From contig DXCM01000033.1 in NCBI GenBank assembly GCA_019116025.1, forward strand, positions 1 through 53,709: DNA of 53,709 bases. The letters run 5' to 3'. A program made the translations under genes and the position numbers. The notes below the pieces were generated by a model. That model was not told the DNA's origin. It was given only the letters and a program-made list of their open reading frames with translations, and did no database searches. This document shows, one piece after another, positions 34,386 through 40,570 of the stretch; the stretch's first letter is position 1, and each line of letters starts with the position of its first letter. The DNA comes from Candidatus Companilactobacillus pullicola (GTDB taxonomy: Bacteria > Bacillota > Bacilli > Lactobacillales > Lactobacillaceae).

Positions 34386-34394
34386 TGGTATAAT
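34386..34394 (+). promoter_or_regulatory. Extended -10 promoter (rightward)
   Basis: TGGTATAAT is a full extended -10 element on the plus strand, ahead of a short plus-strand transcript with a terminator (34,429-34,463). One of four such elements in the early region. Confidence 0.45.
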
Positions 34395-34400
34395 TACCTT

Positions 34401-34463
34401 ATTAATTAATATAGTTATTAGCTAGTTTGTCGTTTGCCATAGCTGTGGTGAGCGACTTTTTTT
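34401..34463 (+). ncRNA. Putative antisense small RNA
   Basis: About 60 bases downstream of TGGTATAAT, ending in an 11-bp hairpin (GTCGTTTGCCA with TGGTGAGCGAC, three wobbles) and seven T. It contains no reading frame and is antisense to the end of the 62-residue leftward gene. The T tract is also coding (Lys codons) on the other strand, so chance is possible. Confidence 0.35.
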
Positions 34464-34590
34464 GTTCGTTCATTTCGCCAGCTAATCTAAGAAATTCATG
34501 TACGTGCCAGTGAGTAGGTTCACGATTAACTAGAACCCTCATCTGTCCGAATTGAATAGCTAAATCTACAAGTTTTTCTAATTCAGTCAT
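34402..34590 (-). CDS. 62-residue early protein, hypothetical
   Basis: A small helical protein (MTELEKLVDLAIQFGQMRVL start) with a TNREPTHW-like central part and several His. A GGAGG site precedes the ATG. It lies just before the Gp157-like gene. The end is overlapped on the other strand by a putative small RNA. No family recognised. Confidence 0.6.
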   Translation of the reverse strand: MTELEKLVDLAIQFGQMRVLVNREPTHWHVHEFLRLAGEMNEQKKSLTTAMANDKLANNYIN

Positions 34591-35219: not shown

Positions 35220-35228
35220 TGATATAAT
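35220..35228 (+). promoter_or_regulatory. Extended -10 promoter for the rightward 106-residue gene
   Basis: TGATATAAT lies 27 bases ahead of the ATG at 35,255. No good -35 is visible, as usual for extended -10 promoters. It opposes the leftward early transcript. Confidence 0.5.
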
Positions 35229-35254
35229 TTTCCTTGAGAAAGGAAGTGATAATA

Positions 35255-35575
35255 ATGGAACTTTCTAAAGAACAAATGAAATTGTTAAAACAAGTTAAAG
35301 AAAATAGTATTAATACTGATCCGGACTACTATTACAACAATCAAATACTTCAAGATTTAATGTATAAAGATGAATTAATCCTTGCGACAATGGAATGGGA
35401 TGATAATAAAGAGACACTGTATCCCACATCTTATGTACTAACCGTAGATGGTAAAAATGAATTATCTAAAGCGATTGAAAAACGTAAGAATCATTGGAAG
35501 GATAAAATTCTTTATCCAATAATAACTGGAACAGTAACTGGTGTTATTGGTTATTTACTTGGTAAATTTGGCTAG
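35255..35575 (+). CDS. Winged-helix-like protein with C-terminal membrane helix
   Basis: A 106-residue protein from ATG 35,255 (AAAGGAAG site). The first 75 residues look like a small winged helix (QILQDLMYKDELI, then TSYVLTVDGKNELSKAI as strand-turn-helix). A basic linker (KRKNHWKDK) leads to one transmembrane helix (about 88-104). It lies on the opposite strand to the surrounding early genes, with its own promoter. It resembles the 118-residue gene at 36,431 in plan. Probably expressed from the prophage; superinfection exclusion or another lysogen trait is a guess. Confidence 0.65.
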   Translation: MELSKEQMKLLKQVKENSINTDPDYYYNNQILQDLMYKDELILATMEWDDNKETLYPTSYVLTVDGKNELSKAIEKRKNHWKDKILYPIITGTVTGVIGYLLGKFG

Positions 35576-35647
35576 TAGATAGCCTAAAATCAACCATATT
35601 ATTCCCGATATTATGCTTGGTAACACTTTGCTTAATTTATTTTTCAT
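35555..35647 (-). CDS. 30-residue single-span membrane peptide
   Basis: A tiny frame with an excellent AGGAGG site (spacing 7-8) from ATG 35,647. It codes for a basic start and one membrane helix with SIISGIIWLILGYLLAKF. It overlaps the 3' end of the rightward gene by 21 bases, tail to tail. In size and plan it is like small hydrophobic toxins or phage membrane effectors. Unknown. Confidence 0.5.
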   Translation of the reverse strand: MKNKLSKVLPSIISGIIWLILGYLLAKFTK

Positions 35648-35659
35648 ATGGTTACCTCC

Positions 35660-35821
35660 TCATAAGTGAATTTCAATTCTTTGAGAACCATCGCTTACCA
35701 CGAGATCAATGGAGTTCGGAAAATGATGAAACTCCTTCTCATATGTTTTCATAATATATTGACTAACTTTATCCCAATCGTCATTGAATTCCTTACTACT
35801 ATCTATTAGTTCTTTCTTCAT
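35660..35821 (-). CDS. 53-residue early protein, hypothetical
   Basis: A small acidic protein (MKKELIDSSKEFNDDWDKVS start) with a GGAGA site. Its ATG overlaps the stop of the upstream gene. The end has a beta-like IDLVVSDGSQRIEIHL. No family recognised. Confidence 0.5.
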   Translation of the reverse strand: MKKELIDSSKEFNDDWDKVSQYIMKTYEKEFHHFPNSIDLVVSDGSQRIEIHL

Positions 35822-35961
35822 TTAATATTCTCCATTACAGCCACTACAATCCAGCAAAGTACTGATATTCCTTGTAAAATCATTCCTACTACTTCCCAGT
35901 CAAAATCGAAATCTCTAAGCCACTCATGTATTCCTGTGATGGCTTTTTTTAATGCACTCAT
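35818..35961 (-). CDS. 47-residue membrane protein, hypothetical
   Basis: Starts at ATG 35,961 with AGGAGGG. An acidic amphipathic part (HEWLRDFDFDWEVV) is followed by one hydrophobic helix (MILQGISVLCWIVVAVM). Couples to the next gene by ATGA. Early-region small membrane protein; role unknown. Confidence 0.5.
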   Translation of the reverse strand: MSALKKAITGIHEWLRDFDFDWEVVGMILQGISVLCWIVVAVMENIK

Positions 35962-35972
35962 AACATCCCTCC

Positions 35973-36107
35973 TTACATATAAAAGTCTGTATATTTATGT
36001 AAAAACTTACTGAAATTATCGCCAATCATCATGTATATGGTTAAAGTGACAATCGCAATTATTGCTACTGGCACCCACACGATTGCTGGTATTGATATGC
36101 TTCTCAT
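35973..36107 (-). CDS. 44-residue membrane protein, hypothetical
   Basis: Starts at ATG 36,107 after a GGGAG site. Residues 5-26 form one hydrophobic helix (IPAIVWVPVAIIAIVTLTIY); the rest is polar with Lys and Asp. Part of a run of tiny early membrane proteins. Function unknown. Confidence 0.5.
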   Translation of the reverse strand: MRSISIPAIVWVPVAIIAIVTLTIYMMIGDNFSKFLHKYTDFYM

Positions 36108-36135
36108 AAAACTCGCTCCCACACTTGTTTTTTTT

Positions 36136-36363
36136 TTATAAATCTTTAATGTAATCGTCTATTTCATTCGGATCATAAAGTTTGGTTCCTTGTGCTAAGT
36201 GATATGGCAAGTTTGGCAAAATTGCTCGTCTTGTACTATCAGCCATATTTAAATAACCTGGTAAATCCTTGCTGCGTAGCCATCGTTTAGGTGTCACAGC
36301 CTGTACGAACTCTTGAAACTGTCGTTCGCTTAGTAAAATTTCAATTGGTTTAATTTCTTCCAT
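36136..36363 (-). CDS. Small DNA-binding protein, MerR/excisionase-like HTH
   Basis: A 75-residue protein. After a 26-residue start it has WLRSKDLPGYLNMADSTRRA, an excisionase/AlpA-type winged helix, ending with LYDPNEIDDYIK. A GGAGGT site precedes the ATG. Its position near the switch would suit an excisionase or a regulator of excision. Family assignment is by pattern only. Confidence 0.6.
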   Translation of the reverse strand: MEEIKPIEILLSERQFQEFVQAVTPKRWLRSKDLPGYLNMADSTRRAILPNLPYHLAQGTKLYDPNEIDDYIKDL

Positions 36364-36386
36364 TGGTTAGACCTCCTTTTTCTCAA

Positions 36387-36395
36387 TGCTATAAT
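36387..36395 (+). promoter_or_regulatory. Extended -10 promoter for the rightward 118-residue gene
   Basis: TGCTATAAT, followed by TTTATTAATTAA, lies 36 bases ahead of the ATG at 36,431. TTAGAC is present 17 bases upstream as a weak -35. Confidence 0.55.
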
Positions 36396-36430
36396 TTTAT
36401 TAATTAACCTAAATATGAGGAAAAATAATT

Positions 36431-36787
36431 ATGGAACAAAAATTAGATATAGCATCTATTAGAATCATGAATTACATCGTTTCTGAAACCAAAAATGGAA
36501 ATAAACCTAATGCACTTGATATTAGAAAAAAATTTCCAAAATATGATGATCAATTAAATTTGGAATATTTATATAGACTTGGTTACATTGATTCCATTAA
36601 CGGATTTTTTTCTGGTTTTCTGACAGCAACTGGGATATACGGGTTTCGTCCAACTGCTAAGTTAATGAAATTTTTTGAATCTTGGAAAACTACATTAGTT
36701 CTTTTCTTTTTAAAAAGTATTCTTGTTCCAGTAGCGGTAACTGTAATTACTACACTTCTTATTCTTTTATTGAATTTAAAAAAATAA
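36431..36787 (+). CDS. Winged-helix-like protein with C-terminal membrane helix
   Basis: A 118-residue protein with a GAGGAAAA site. Residues 1-75 look like a winged helix (IMNYIVSETKNGNKPNALDI, then a YLYRLGYID turn and FLTATGIYGFRPTAKL). Residues 90-114 form a long transmembrane helix, ending in LKK. It is on the opposite strand to its neighbours and has its own promoter. The plan matches the gene at 35,255. Likely a moron expressed in the lysogen. Confidence 0.65.
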   Translation: MEQKLDIASIRIMNYIVSETKNGNKPNALDIRKKFPKYDDQLNLEYLYRLGYIDSINGFFSGFLTATGIYGFRPTAKLMKFFESWKTTLVLFFLKSILVPVAVTVITTLLILLLNLKK

Positions 36788-36886
36788 GAAAAACATCATC
36801 AAAAGTAAAATTATTATTATTCCTATTTCAATAAACGGATAAAATACTATGAAAATTGCCCATATCCAGCCTTTAAGGTTATCCAT
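36776..36886 (-). CDS. 36-residue membrane peptide
   Basis: Starts at ATG 36,886 with a GGAGGT site. Nearly all hydrophobic: IWAIFIVFYPFIEIGIIII then a second Leu/Met/Phe-rich stretch. It follows the antirepressor gene closely and overlaps the rightward gene's end by 12 bases, tail to tail. Same arrangement as 35,555-35,647. Confidence 0.5.
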   Translation of the reverse strand: MDNLKGWIWAIFIVFYPFIEIGIIIILLLMMFFLFF

Positions 36887-36889
36887 TGT

Positions 36890-37672
36890 TTATACCTCCA
36901 TGAGTTGTTCAATCGCAGGATAAATATTGTGCTGCTTAAGGATTTCATATAACCCTAAACGACCTTTTTGCGTCCATTTAGTATTAAGAACAGCTTTTTC
37001 CGTGCCATCTTTTCGTTTAACCATTGTTGTATCTGAATGAGTCCAACCGTTATGTTGATATTTAGAATAAAGCAACCACGTTTTACCTTGTTTATACTGA
37101 ATTCCAAGTTCATGAAGTTTAGCATTCATCTCTCTACCACTCATCCCGTAATCTTTGGCGATAATTGTGATGGTTACTAATGATGGATTAGCAAGAACTT
37201 TGTCATAATAAGTAACTTTTGGTCTGTCTTCCGCAACTTGCTGTTCAGCAATCAATCTACCTTCGCGTTCTGTTTTTAGCTGTGTGGCTAACTTAATTAG
37301 GTAATCTGGATCAGTTAACGTTTGCTCAATTGCGGAATCAGTTAAGTAAGCACCATGCTTTCTGATAGTTGGTAGGACTTCTGATGTTACCCAATCTTGA
37401 AACTTTTCAGCCGTTGCGTTATTAGCCTTAATTGCTAACTTATAAAATTGTGGTTCAGTGATAAAATCGCCTTTTGAAATACGGGCGCCACTTTTGGCGC
37501 TACTAAGATAGGAATTTAAACGTGCCCATCTAACTTTAGTAGTTCCTTTAGAGGTATCGACAATTCCTAACCCAATTGCTACTCTTTCAGCATCAAATTC
37601 GATATCCCCATTTTCATTAGTTCTAACTGGTAATTTGATATCACCATTTGTAAATTCTTGTAAATTGTTCAT
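36890..37672 (-). CDS. Phage antirepressor (Bro-N/KilAC)
   Basis: A 260-residue protein. Residues 1-110 resemble a Bro-N or related antirepressor domain (ARLNSYLSSAKSGARISKGD, EPQFYKLAIKANNATAEKFQ, then DWVTSEVLPTIRKHGAYL). Residues 145-255 are the KilAC/ANT domain (ITIIAKDYGMSGREMNAKLH, then GRLGLYEILKQ). It would counter the repressor or control early genes. It follows the Cro-like gene and belongs to the leftward operon. Confidence 0.85.
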   Translation of the reverse strand: MNNLQEFTNGDIKLPVRTNENGDIEFDAERVAIGLGIVDTSKGTTKVRWARLNSYLSSAKSGARISKGDFITEPQFYKLAIKANNATAEKFQDWVTSEVLPTIRKHGAYLTDSAIEQTLTDPDYLIKLATQLKTEREGRLIAEQQVAEDRPKVTYYDKVLANPSLVTITIIAKDYGMSGREMNAKLHELGIQYKQGKTWLLYSKYQHNGWTHSDTTMVKRKDGTEKAVLNTKWTQKGRLGLYEILKQHNIYPAIEQLMEV

Positions 37673-37690
37673 TACTTCTTACCTTCTTTT

Positions 37691-37894
37691 TTATAGATTT
37701 AAAACTCTTGCTACTTGTTCGCGTAACTCACGTGACTTGGGTGTCATGTCGCCTTTAATGGCTCTATTTAATTGCTGTGGATTAGCATGAATCAATTCAG
37801 CTAACTCTTTTTGAGTCATATCTCGATTAAGCAATGCGATCTTAATTGATCGTTCAATATCATGCGCTACCTTTGCGAATTGTTGTTCTGGCAT
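37691..37894 (-). CDS. Cro-like XRE-family regulator
   Basis: A 67-residue helix-turn-helix protein. The HTH is DMTQKELAELIHANPQQLNR with IKGDMTPKSRELRE after it. A GGAGCT site precedes the ATG. Position just ahead of the antirepressor in the leftward transcript fits a Cro role against the rightward repressor. Function in the switch is inferred. Confidence 0.7.
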   Translation of the reverse strand: MPEQQFAKVAHDIERSIKIALLNRDMTQKELAELIHANPQQLNRAIKGDMTPKSRELREQVARVLNL

Positions 37895-37913
37895 ATAATC
37901 AGCTCCTTTCTAT

Positions 37914-37922
37914 TGTTATAAT
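37914..37922 (+). promoter_or_regulatory. Extended -10 promoter for the rightward 66-residue gene
   Basis: TGTTATAAT, followed by TTGATTAATT, lies about 34 bases ahead of the ATG at 37,956. It is immediately next to the Cro-like gene's start, in the opposite direction. Confidence 0.5.
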
Positions 37923-37955
37923 TTGATTAATTCATATATATTCGAGGTGAAAATA

Positions 37956-38156
37956 ATGGATAATGAACAACGTGCCCATGATTTAGCGCTGGCATATATT
38001 CAGGCGGATATCAATAGCCTATCTGGCGTTGAACGAACCGAAGAGAAACTTTCCATTTTGCATAATGCTGGTTCTAACACTAAGGAAGCCAATCTAATAG
38101 ACTCTTATAATCATTTATATGATTCTATTTTGAAGAGTCTGAATGATCGCCATTAA
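37956..38156 (+). CDS. 66-residue rightward protein, hypothetical
   Basis: Starts at ATG 37,956 (GAGGTGA site). A helical, acidic soluble protein (MDNEQRAHDLALAYIQADIN start; HNAGSNTKEANLIDSYNHLY). It opposes the leftward early operon and overlaps the 76-residue gene's end by 32 bases. Likely expressed in the lysogen, role unknown. Confidence 0.6.
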   Translation: MDNEQRAHDLALAYIQADINSLSGVERTEEKLSILHNAGSNTKEANLIDSYNHLYDSILKSLNDRH

Positions 38157-38355
38157 ATGCTTTCAAAACATCTTTTCTAGTGAGTGGTTTACGATCTTCA
38201 CGAATTTGTTTCAAGACGGTCAATATGTCATCTAGTTTCGAAATCATAATGATTTCGGAGCTTTTTTTATCTAATAATCTATTTATCGTGATTGTCGCTT
38301 CTTTTAACGAACTAGTTAATACATCTATAATCTTCAAATACTTATTTTCATCCAT
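38125..38355 (-). CDS. 76-residue early protein, hypothetical
   Basis: The first leftward gene from the switch, with an AGGAGGT site at ideal spacing. Charged and helical (MDENKYLKIIDVLTSSLKEA start, IREDRKPLTRKDVLKAFNGD). It has no clear HTH. Its end overlaps the rightward gene's end. It would be the first product made when the leftward promoter fires. Confidence 0.65.
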   Translation of the reverse strand: MDENKYLKIIDVLTSSLKEATITINRLLDKKSSEIIMISKLDDILTVLKQIREDRKPLTRKDVLKAFNGDHSDSSK

Positions 38356-38394: not shown

Positions 38395-38423
38395 TTGACA
38401 AATTATTAGACTAAGTCTAATAT
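38395..38423 (+). promoter_or_regulatory. Rightward lysogeny promoter
   Basis: TTGACA, 17-base spacer, TAATAT. The operator (38,405-38,421) fills the spacer. It points to the repressor gene at 38,615, giving a leader of about 185 bases. Confidence 0.65.
38405..38421. promoter_or_regulatory. Operator 1
   Basis: ATTAGACT-A-AGTCTAAT, a perfect odd palindrome of 17 bases. Same unit as at 38,533-38,549 and 38,566-38,582; likely bound by the CI-like repressor and/or the Cro-like protein. Confidence 0.7.
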
Positions 38424-38529
38424 TAAGGCATAACAAATAAGCAATTTAAACCTTATTACTACCGCAATTCTCGCCAAAGTATTGTATCGGTGGTCGTGTG
38501 TTTTTGTTGCTCAATTACTTGATGAATTA

Positions 38530-38558
38530 ATAATAAGACTAAGTCTAAAAAAATGCAA
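38530..38558 (-). promoter_or_regulatory. Leftward early promoter
   Basis: Minus-strand TTGCAT, 17-base spacer, TATTAT. Operator 2 fills the spacer. It points to the 76-residue gene with a leader of about 170 bases, so the two leaders overlap in antisense. Confidence 0.6.
38533..38549. promoter_or_regulatory. Operator 2
   Basis: ATAAGACTAAGTCTAAA, with the core AGACTAAGTCT identical to operator 1. It lies between -35 and -10 of the leftward promoter. Confidence 0.7.
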
Positions 38559-38565
38559 GTATATT

Positions 38566-38582
38566 TTTAGTCTAAGTCTAAT
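38566..38582. promoter_or_regulatory. Operator 3 (imperfect)
   Basis: TTTAGTCTAAGTCTAAT differs from operator 1 at two positions. It lies just upstream of the leftward -35 and about 33 bases ahead of the repressor ATG. Confidence 0.6.
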
Positions 38583-39377: not shown

Positions 39378-39413
39378 TATACTGATCAAATATATATATT
39401 TATGGGGGAAATT

Positions 39414-39905
39414 ATGAAAAAGTATAAAAAAATATTAATTACGGGTATGGCTATATTAGCGAGTACAACAGCTAGTTTAGAAACCATATCAGCGATAAAT
39501 GTTTATGCGTCAAATGATACTAGAACAGTTAAAAAGTTGTCACCAAATTCTGATTATCCAAATATTAAATCTAAATTTGATGTAACAAATATGACTCAAT
39601 ATTCGGATGATGACCTATTCGGTGCTGTTACATTAAATAAGTTCTATGTAAAAAGTGTGGGTGCTGATCCAATGAAACAATATCATGTATTGCTAACGCC
39701 CACTAAACATAGCAGCCAATACTTCTTACTAGTTACAAAATCCAAGAAGAAAATTCGTTTACACGATAAATTGACCGCTCAAGTTGCTTTGAATGGTTCA
39801 AGTAAAATTAATGATGCTCAAATAAATTCAGGAATTAGTGAAAGCTATTCAGGTAAACATGTTATTTTAACAATGCCTGATAAAATTGCTGTCTATCACA
39901 AATAA
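39414..39905 (+). CDS. Secreted protein, possible lysogenic conversion factor
   Basis: About 163 residues from ATG 39,414, the ATG twelve bases earlier being inside the GGGGGA site. Signal peptide: basic start (MKKYKKILITGMAILAST) with a likely cut near VYAS-ND. The mature part is soluble and rich in Lys/Asp and beta strands (FYVKSVGADPMKQYHVLLTP). No catalytic motif is seen. Its place between repressor and integrase is typical of genes expressed by the prophage. Confidence 0.6.
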   Translation: MKKYKKILITGMAILASTTASLETISAINVYASNDTRTVKKLSPNSDYPNIKSKFDVTNMTQYSDDDLFGAVTLNKFYVKSVGADPMKQYHVLLTPTKHSSQYFLLVTKSKKKIRLHDKLTAQVALNGSSKINDAQINSGISESYSGKHVILTMPDKIAVYHK

Positions 39906-40204: not shown

Positions 40205-40570
40205 ATGATAAGCTCATATAAAAAATTCTGGAATAATATTTTTAATTTTTCAAGCACTAGTTCTCGCTCTGATTATTGGTGGCCAGTAATCATAAATTAT
40301 ATCTTGTCTGGTTTGATTATTAGCATCATTCAAAAAATGATGGGGCACCCAATTGAGGACATATATAACCTCACCGATTTGACAGCAAACTGGGCACTTT
40401 ATATTATAAGTATCATCGTTTGGATAGGAACATTTACAGTAAAGGTTCGTAGATTACATGACACCGATCGTTCAGGCTGGTGGTTATTAATCGATTTGAT
40501 TCCAGTAATCGGTACAATTTGGTTCTTTATATTAATGATATTACCTTCAAAAAGAAGCCGTTGGAACTAA
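40205..40570 (+). CDS. DUF805 family membrane protein
   Basis: A 121-residue inner-membrane protein with the DUF805 pattern: SRSDYWWPVIINY near the start, then VRRLHDTDRSGWWLL and a C-terminal span ending MILPSKRSRWN. Three or four transmembrane helices. DUF805 genes are often in phage and mobile DNA; the role is unknown. A strong terminator follows. Confidence 0.8.
   Translation: MISSYKKFWNNIFNFSSTSSRSDYWWPVIINYILSGLIISIIQKMMGHPIEDIYNLTDLTANWALYIISIIVWIGTFTVKVRRLHDTDRSGWWLLIDLIPVIGTIWFFILMILPSKRSRWN

What the first reader, a model, noticed from the sequence alone, without database searches (positions are those of the whole stretch)
35220..38156. Rightward genes with extended -10 promoters inside the leftward early operon
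Genes at 35,255, 36,431 and 37,956 read against all neighbours. Each is preceded by TGN-TATAAT (35,220, 36,387, 37,914), as is the putative small RNA (34,386). Three of the four elements are followed by an ATTAATT-type run, and all lie beside the start of a leftward gene. Two of the proteins share a plan: about 75-residue winged-helix-like part, basic linker and a terminal membrane helix. These look like genes expressed from the prophage, candidates for exclusion, sensing or defence. I do not know a described family with this plan.
Basis: partly seen in the sequence, partly recalled or inferred. Interest (0 to 1): 0.7.

Follow-up and report, generated by a model that had tools for sequence, protein, structure and literature searches.

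The report
Antisense membrane-gene pairs in prophages
Two small genes in this dormant virus are read against its virus-making genes from their own promoters, and each overlaps, on the other strand, a tiny gene whose protein often carries a similar membrane anchor, which suggests a matched on/off pair that may guard the host cell and let the virus escape its own guard.

Summary
The four TG-N-TATAAT sites are clustered beyond chance (0 of 2000 local shuffles). Genes 1 (35255) and 2 (36431) share a plan: MarR/PadR-like winged helix plus C-terminal membrane helix. They fall in a diverged prophage family of unknown function. Among 27 non-redundant members, 16 have an extended -10 with at most one mismatch (1.6 expected), and 20 of 21 scorable loci place the gene on the repressor/integrase strand. 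These peptides resemble their own partner's membrane helix beyond permutation and shuffling, though not in every pair: window pair 1 does, pair 2 does not. Four hits in other families of the order repeat the layout. The small RNA at 34386 is supported by covariation. Gene 3 is unrelated. Function is inferred: lysogen-expressed exclusion or regulatory protein with a cognate early escape peptide, working like P22 SieB/Esc. No expression data exist here.

The parts
34386..34394 (+). Extended -10 (TGGTATAAT) of the small RNA
   Evidence: a TG-N-TATAAT-like element recurs in relatives
34401..34464 (+). Putative small RNA; start inferred about 7 nt after the -10, end at the T run
   Evidence: no RNA data
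34429..34456 (+). Terminator-like hairpin of the small RNA, followed by seven T
   Evidence: 108 of 108 cells paired over 9 sequences, 7 of 12 pairs with two-sided changes
35220..35228 (+). Extended -10 (TGATATAAT) of gene A1
   Evidence: kept in C. kimchii and C. futsaii relatives
35230..35245 (+). Dyad TTCCTT-GAGA-AAGGAA at the inferred start of A1 transcription; possible operator
   Evidence: kept in L006 and L007; function inferred
35255..35575 (+). Gene A1, 106 aa: winged helix plus C-terminal membrane helix
35555..35647 (-). ORF B1, 30 aa membrane peptide, overlaps A1 tail to tail by 21 nt; membrane segment resembles that of A1
   Evidence: (z 6.8)
36387..36395 (+). Extended -10 (TGCTATAAT) of gene A2
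36431..36787 (+). Gene A2, 118 aa: same plan as A1
   Evidence: (membrane part only)
36776..36886 (-). ORF B2, 36 aa membrane peptide, overlaps A2 tail to tail by 12 nt; no significant likeness to A2
   Evidence: (z 0.5)
37914..37922 (+). Extended -10 (TGTTATAAT) of gene 3
37956..38156 (+). Gene 3, 66 aa, not of the A family; overlaps the end of a leftward ORF (38125-38355) by 32 nt
38234..38262 (+). Rightward terminator-like hairpin with T run after gene 3

Best explanation
A1 and A2 are lysogenic-strand accessory genes of a family in Lactobacillales prophages, each in a convergent pair with a short early-strand ORF (B). SHOWN by sequence: A has its own promoter-like element, reads against the early operon and with the repressor/integrase, and encodes a winged helix with a C-terminal membrane helix; B overlaps A tail to tail and carries a membrane helix that, over the family as a whole, resembles that of its own A. 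INFERRED: in the lysogen A is made constantly and sits in the membrane, where it excludes competing phages or keeps the lytic programme down; its transcript, if it runs on across B, also silences B. On induction, or infection by the same phage, early transcription makes B, whose bare membrane helix joins A's and disarms it, so the phage is not blocked by its own guard. This works like P22 SieB/Esc without being homologous to it. I am more than 90% confident in the anatomy; the stated confidence is for the functional model.
For: Family: 37 of 397 Lactobacillaceae genomes hit at E 0.001; 36 of 40 listed places read, 31 kept, 27 below 80% identity. Promoter: exact TGNTATAAT in 6 of 27 against 0.12 expected from shuffles, at most one mismatch in 16 of 27 against 1.6; among 279 upstream regions of other genes 0.4% and 3.2%. 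Without the two window genes and L006 these are 3 and 13 of 24. A leftward gene starts within 150 nt upstream in 23 of 27. Same strand as repressor or integrase in 20 of 21 scorable loci, the window not counted. Convergent membrane ORF with ribosome site: 19 of 27 against 4 of 379 control genes and 1 of 26 with a C-terminal membrane helix; without the ribosome-site rule 24 of 27 against 58 of 379 and 8 of 26. B resembles own A more than other A (36.4 against 28.0, 0 of 20000 permutations) and more than shuffled B does (z 12.6), with z of 2 or more in 13 of 24 pairs; 64 other small membrane ORFs score 20.8. A profile of seven B peptides finds five A genes of other loci, A2 among them, at E 3e-4 to 6e-3. 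Two of nine B peptides match the C-terminal end of the A family phrog_12206, E 6e-4 and 9e-4. B has pN at or below pS in 9 of 9 comparisons. Four of four strong hits outside Lactobacillaceae repeat the layout. In Streptococcus phages Javan534 and Javan210 the depositors annotated both ORFs. A occurs without B in 3 of 27, once between terminase and portal genes (L056), so A probably has a function of its own.
Against: No transcription, toxicity or phage-challenge data. B2 of the window does not resemble A2 (z 0.5; E 15); 5 of 24 B have z below 1, and of the four out-of-family pairs L119 has z 0.5. The likeness could reflect shared membrane preferences or common descent; permutation does not remove relatedness. 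The relaxed partner rule also finds ORFs at 15% of control genes and 31% of those with a C-terminal membrane helix. The B profile hits unrelated membrane proteins at the same E as the A genes. A B-type ORF without A exists (L129), which an escape role does not predict. A-strand terminators within 330 nt of A are not above control (10 of 32 against 8 of 32 on the reverse strand; shuffles 1-7), and none was found after A1 or A2, so that the A transcript ends in or across B is unproven. A1 and A2 share little sequence (12% identity); their kinship rests on plan, fold and membrane segment. Foldseek gave no E below 0.001.
Confidence: 0.42

Rival explanations
1. Type I toxin-antitoxin-like pair: B is a small toxic membrane peptide and the A transcript, overlapping its 3' end, is the antisense antitoxin; the A protein adds control or is secondary.
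For: B has the size and membrane helix of prophage type I toxins, and overlapping genes in convergent orientation are described for several of them (PMC6563280, passages). In 7 of 32 loci an A-strand terminator lies 99-125 nt past the A stop, around the start of B.
Against: The opposite transcript encodes a conserved protein, and many B resemble that protein's membrane helix. A occurs without B (3 of 27). The overall terminator count is not above control.
Confidence: 0.2
2. A is a membrane-tethered transcription regulator (working like ToxR or CadC, recalled) that senses envelope state and acts on phage promoters; B is its membrane partner or antagonist.
For: MarR/PadR-like winged helix in both models; weak Pfam hits HTH_45 in 2 and HTH_24 in 1 of 27 members; a dyad at the A1 start, conserved in two relatives.
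Against: No outer domain: few residues follow the helix. I saw no operator shared by the upstream regions (by eye).
Confidence: 0.23
3. A is an ordinary stand-alone accessory gene and B is an unrelated small membrane gene of the early operon that happens to lie there.
For: The window's early operon holds other small membrane ORFs; B2 does not resemble A2; without the ribosome-site rule such ORFs occur at 15-31% of control genes.
Against: 19 of 27 against about 1% of control genes under the strict rule, pair-specific likeness and recurrence in other families.
Confidence: 0.08

Closest known systems
P22/lambda SieB and Esc with sas antisense RNA
   Same: Prophage-expressed exclusion; a second product that can bypass it; antisense RNA involved (PMC12197685 and PMC10883804, passages). 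That Esc is a shortened SieB made from early transcripts is recalled.
   Different: Esc comes from the sieB gene itself; B is a separate ORF on the other strand. No SieB family among the Pfam hits.
Pseudomonas phage Fc02 olg1 and gene 10
   Same: Overlapping genes on opposite strands beside the repressor, one on the lysogenic and one on the lytic strand, both with exclusion activity (PMC9936078, abstract and passages).
   Different: Extensive overlap rather than tail to tail; Olg1 is soluble and matched to an exonuclease domain; the passages seen describe no shared membrane helix.
BstA with the aba self-immunity element
   Same: Prophage-expressed defence with cognate self-immunity (PMC8585504, passages).
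   Different: aba is described as DNA-based, not a peptide.
Prophage type I toxin-antitoxin modules (TxpA/RatA, BsrG/SR4, Clostridioides pairs)
   Same: Small hydrophobic peptide, overlapping convergent genes, prophage location (PMC6563280, passages).
   Different: Here the opposite strand encodes a conserved protein with a similar membrane segment.
phrog_12206 and phrog_20650 (unknown function)
   Same: 16 of 27 A members match phrog_12206 and 2 match phrog_20650 at E 0.001 or better; of nine B peptides, two match phrog_20650 at E 1e-23 and 2e-10.
   Different: Family labels without a function; the pairing is not stated there.

Membership tests
phrog_12206 | Profile match | tested here: met
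   A1 E 1.8e-5 over most of its length; A2 E 0.0022, membrane part only; 16 of 27 members at 0.001
Type I toxin-antitoxin | Small membrane peptide with convergent 3' overlap | tested here: met
Type I toxin-antitoxin | Antitoxin is a non-coding antisense RNA | tested here: not met
   The opposite gene encodes a conserved protein
Type I toxin-antitoxin | Peptide is toxic when expressed | not testable with these tools
   needs the bench
SieB/Esc | Homology to SieB | tested here: not met
   No SieB family among Pfam hits; that Pfam holds a SieB model is recalled
SieB/Esc | Escape protein from the same gene as the exclusion protein (recalled) | tested here: not met
   B lies on the opposite strand
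SieB/Esc | Exclusion and escape activity | not testable with these tools
   needs phage challenge
Prophage accessory gene (moron) | Own promoter and orientation against the lytic genes | tested here: met
   promoter by sequence only
Prophage accessory gene (moron) | Own terminator | tested here: inconclusive
   Gene 3 has a terminator-like site; A1 and A2 have none within 330 nt; 10 of 32 loci against 8 of 32 control
ToxR-like membrane regulators | Winged helix, membrane helix and outer domain (recalled) | tested here: not met
   Only a short tail follows the helix
Known anti-phage defence families (PADLOC) | Profile match | tested here: inconclusive
   A1 none; among the 10 members scanned seven families have weak hits, the best a winged-helix model at 7.9e-5 in one member

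The most novel reading that the evidence does not exclude
A previously undescribed class of phage state-switch: two genes on opposite strands, each expressed in the opposite phase of the phage life, overlap tail to tail and encode matching membrane helices, so that the lytic-phase peptide disarms the lysogenic-phase winged-helix membrane protein, and each pair recognises itself but not others.
Probability: 0.33. Interest if true: 0.9.

Novelty: new variant of a known kind. Interest (0 to 1): 0.72.

Why it matters
If right, it is a compact example, found in several families of one bacterial order, of how a prophage can guard its host without blocking its own escape, encoded as cognate overlapping pairs. 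It makes a question that is open for Gram-positive prophages (how they avoid their own exclusion) directly testable with two very small genes. The small RNA adds a candidate RNA family with no Rfam match.

Tried and rejected
Chance promoters: rejected by clustering and family-wide enrichment. ATTAATT as a shared operator: rejected as a family feature (listing). Gene 3 as a third member: rejected. Repressor operators at these promoters: TTAGACTAAGTCTAA-type repeats lie upstream of the window's repressor (read by eye) and not at the four sites. A terminator after every A: not supported. Similarity created by antisense overlap: disfavoured, since pairs with 68-74 nt overlap have z -0.1 to 2.0 while the best scores come from short overlaps (L061 4 nt, z 5.3; L074 14 nt, z 4.7; L064 29 nt, z 7.5); other short-overlap pairs score low (L067, L068, window pair 2). 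Named phages: tblastn of A1 and A2 found none; of seven other A proteins, five searches gave one record (Hujiaoplasma phage zrk29-2) and two gave Streptococcus phages. Rows dropped before counting: four of the 40 places were not read (in G294, G243, G287:C13, G235; E 4.5e-5 to 3.7e-4); L079-L083 were left out as broken, truncated or different; L121-L124 (no membrane helix, or PadR-like, or broken) were not taken as members. Literature: ten searches found no description of the pair; only open-licence papers are held, and I saw listings except for the papers cited by passage.
Full report
WHAT WAS CHECKED. The window is a prophage region of a Companilactobacillus (genomes of the same genus hold the loci named C. 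kimchii and C. futsaii). Across the window the motif is not enriched (6 against 5.3), but four on one strand in 3.5 kb is unusual: 0 of 2000 dinucleotide shuffles of the region and 1 of 200 whole-window shuffles reach it. Each sits 11-24 nt from the start of a leftward ORF.

THE FAMILY. Gene 1 (A1, 35255-35575) matches phrog_12206, a family of unknown function, at E 1.8e-5; gene 2 (A2, 36431-36787) matches it at E 0.0022 with its membrane part only. A profile of ten sequences, both window genes among them, hit 37 of 397 Lactobacillaceae genomes at E 0.001. Of 40 listed places I read 36, left out L079-L083 as broken, truncated or different, and kept 31 members, 27 of them below 80% identity to each other. 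The family is very diverged: apart from one close relative, 12-32% identity to A1, and 12% between A1 and A2. One proline in the membrane segment is invariant.

THE FOLD. AlphaFold models of A1 (mean pLDDT 87) and A2 (mean pLDDT 80, a loop of the wing below 50) show three helices, two wing strands and one long C-terminal helix that holds the membrane segment; in A1 the end of that helix is less certain (69-75). The best PDB matches are MarR and PadR type winged helices and similar, at E 0.017 (A1) and 0.005 (A2), none below 0.001; a search of viral models gave E 0.004 at best. The fold class is clear but no specific relative is named.

PROMOTERS AND STRAND. Exact TGNTATAAT lies 15-75 nt upstream of 6 of 27 members against 0.12 expected from shuffles, and with at most one mismatch in 16 of 27 against 1.6 (most in any of 500 shuffle rounds 2 and 7); among 279 upstream regions of other genes the rates are 0.4% and 3.2%. 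Leaving out the two window genes and L006 gives 3 and 13 of 24. A leftward gene starts within 150 nt upstream in 23 of 27. Of 25 loci outside the window, 21 showed a repressor or integrase by tblastn; A lies on the same strand in 20. The exception, L060, also lacks B and a good -10; in L071 two weak hits lie on the other strand beside the main one. This is the layout of genes read in the lysogen; a published accessory gene antisense to lytic genes with its own promoter is in PMC7067206 (passages).

THE PARTNER. Each window A gene overlaps, tail to tail, a leftward ORF with a ribosome-binding site and a membrane helix: B1 35555-35647 (30 aa, 21 nt overlap) and B2 36776-36886 (36 aa, 12 nt overlap). 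With a ribosome site required, 19 of 27 family loci have such an ORF, against 4 of 379 other genes and 1 of 26 other genes with a C-terminal membrane helix. Without that rule it is 24 of 27 (adding L057, L065, L067, L069, L075), against 58 of 379 and 8 of 26. L056, L060 and L078 have none under either rule. Overlaps run from 4 to 74 nt.

LIKENESS OF THE PAIR. The 24 B peptides score 36.4 on average against the end of their own A, 28.0 against other A (0 of 20000 permutations reach the own-pair mean) and 23.0 when shuffled within segments (z 12.6); singly, 13 of 24 have z of 2 or more and 5 have z below 1 (L055, L067, L072, L073 and window pair 2). Sixty-four other small membrane ORFs of the same loci score 20.8 (p 5e-9), the best of them 36. 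With a profile of A ends, the ten best of 88 peptides are all B; the other 14 B mix with the controls. In reverse, a profile of seven B peptides over 350 genomes listed 33 places: two B-type ORFs at E 2e-11 or better, then, from E 1e-4 on, A genes of L060, L058, the window's A2, L056 and L066 and an A remnant in G317 among unrelated membrane proteins. PHROGs agrees in part: two of nine B peptides match the C-terminal end of phrog_12206 (E 6e-4, 9e-4), and two of 27 A members match phrog_20650, the family of two B peptides. The likeness is not made by antisense coding, since the long-overlap pairs show it least. Between relatives B has pN at or below pS in 9 of 9 comparisons, equal in one (L071/L073); several share a locus and are not independent.

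OUT-OF-SAMPLE TEST. A 27-row profile over 395 genomes of the order gave four hits outside Lactobacillaceae at E 1e-10 or better. All four read against their neighbours and have a convergent membrane ORF overlapping by 4-15 nt; three have an exact TGNTATAAT and one (L118) TATAAT with TG one base off. Their pair likeness has z 2.7, 4.5, 0.5 and 5.6, together 6.7. The A protein of L119 is identical in Streptococcus phages Javan534, Javan535 and Javan539 and 57% identical in Javan210. I looked at the annotation of Javan534 and Javan210: in both, A and B are annotated as overlapping hypothetical proteins on opposite strands. Four weaker hits (L121-L124) were not members.

HOW IT MAY WORK. Shown: two opposed genes, promoter-like element, fold, overlap, likeness. 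Inferred: A is made in the lysogen and B after induction; their membrane helices, both at or near the C-terminus and so probably parallel, can pair; B disarms A. This parallels P22 SieB and Esc (PMC12197685; PMC10883804) and the cognate self-immunity of BstA (PMC8585504). In phage Fc02 two opposed overlapping genes, one per phase, both exclude phages (PMC9936078). Type I toxin-antitoxin modules share the layout of B (PMC6563280) but not the protein-coding partner. A without B, once between a portal and a terminase gene (L056; Pfam), argues for a function of A itself; a B-type ORF without A (L129) argues the other way.

THE SMALL RNA. Rightward from 34386 an extended -10 is followed after 34 nt by a 12-pair hairpin and seven T. 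Nine sequences of equal length pair in 108 of 108 cells, with two-sided changes in 7 of 12 pairs; 0 of 500 shuffles match this. L006, L105 and L109 have stems of another length and were not in that count; they fold with bulges or mismatches. A covariance model built from 11 sequences finds it at E 0.001 or better in 29 of 36 genomes of the genus; the sources match by construction and the weakest may be other terminators. In 14 of 25 loci inspected a relative of the neighbouring Gp157 gene (Pfam) is found nearby, in the rest not. Rfam has no match. The hairpin overlaps the end of a leftward coding sequence, which may add constraint.

GENE 3. It is 66 aa, not of the A family, with its own -10 and a terminator-like site, and is identical in a second genome of the genus together with its -10 region. 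I have no function for it.

VERDICT. As a functional claim it remains a hypothesis; as anatomy it is solid.

Noticed in passing
34386-34464 and loci L101-L111, L158-L182: Small-RNA cassette widespread in the genus: extended -10, AT-rich stretch, covarying hairpin, T run; a second match lies in this genome at G000:C86:6463-6546.
   Followed up: partly
38406-38581: Three TTAGACTAAGTCTAA-type repeats upstream of the repressor gene (38615), likely operators, read by eye; the corresponding repeats in L006 look different, as does part of its repressor.
   Followed up: no
39402-39905 and 40205-40570: Between repressor and integrase on the lysogenic strand: a protein with a signal-peptide-like start and no Pfam match, and a DUF805 membrane protein; further accessory candidates.
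   Followed up: partly
L006:6408 and L007:6408: A second TGATATAAT directly upstream of the B gene, with a rightward terminator-like site about 150 nt on in L006 but no recognised gene; similar elements beside B in L057, L069 and L078.
   Followed up: no
L129 (G323): A B-type peptide ORF with no A gene seen opposite it: an orphan partner.
   Followed up: partly
L052, L053, L062, L063, L089-L095: Several A genes lack an ATG at the expected start and may use ATT or another start codon.
   Followed up: no
L141 (G026): Two short membrane peptide ORFs in convergent overlap, as if A had lost its winged helix.
   Followed up: no
L097 (Hujiaoplasma phage zrk29-2): A record filed under a Tenericutes host carries an A/B-type pair very like that of the Lactobacillaceae locus L053; the host label may deserve a check.
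   Followed up: no
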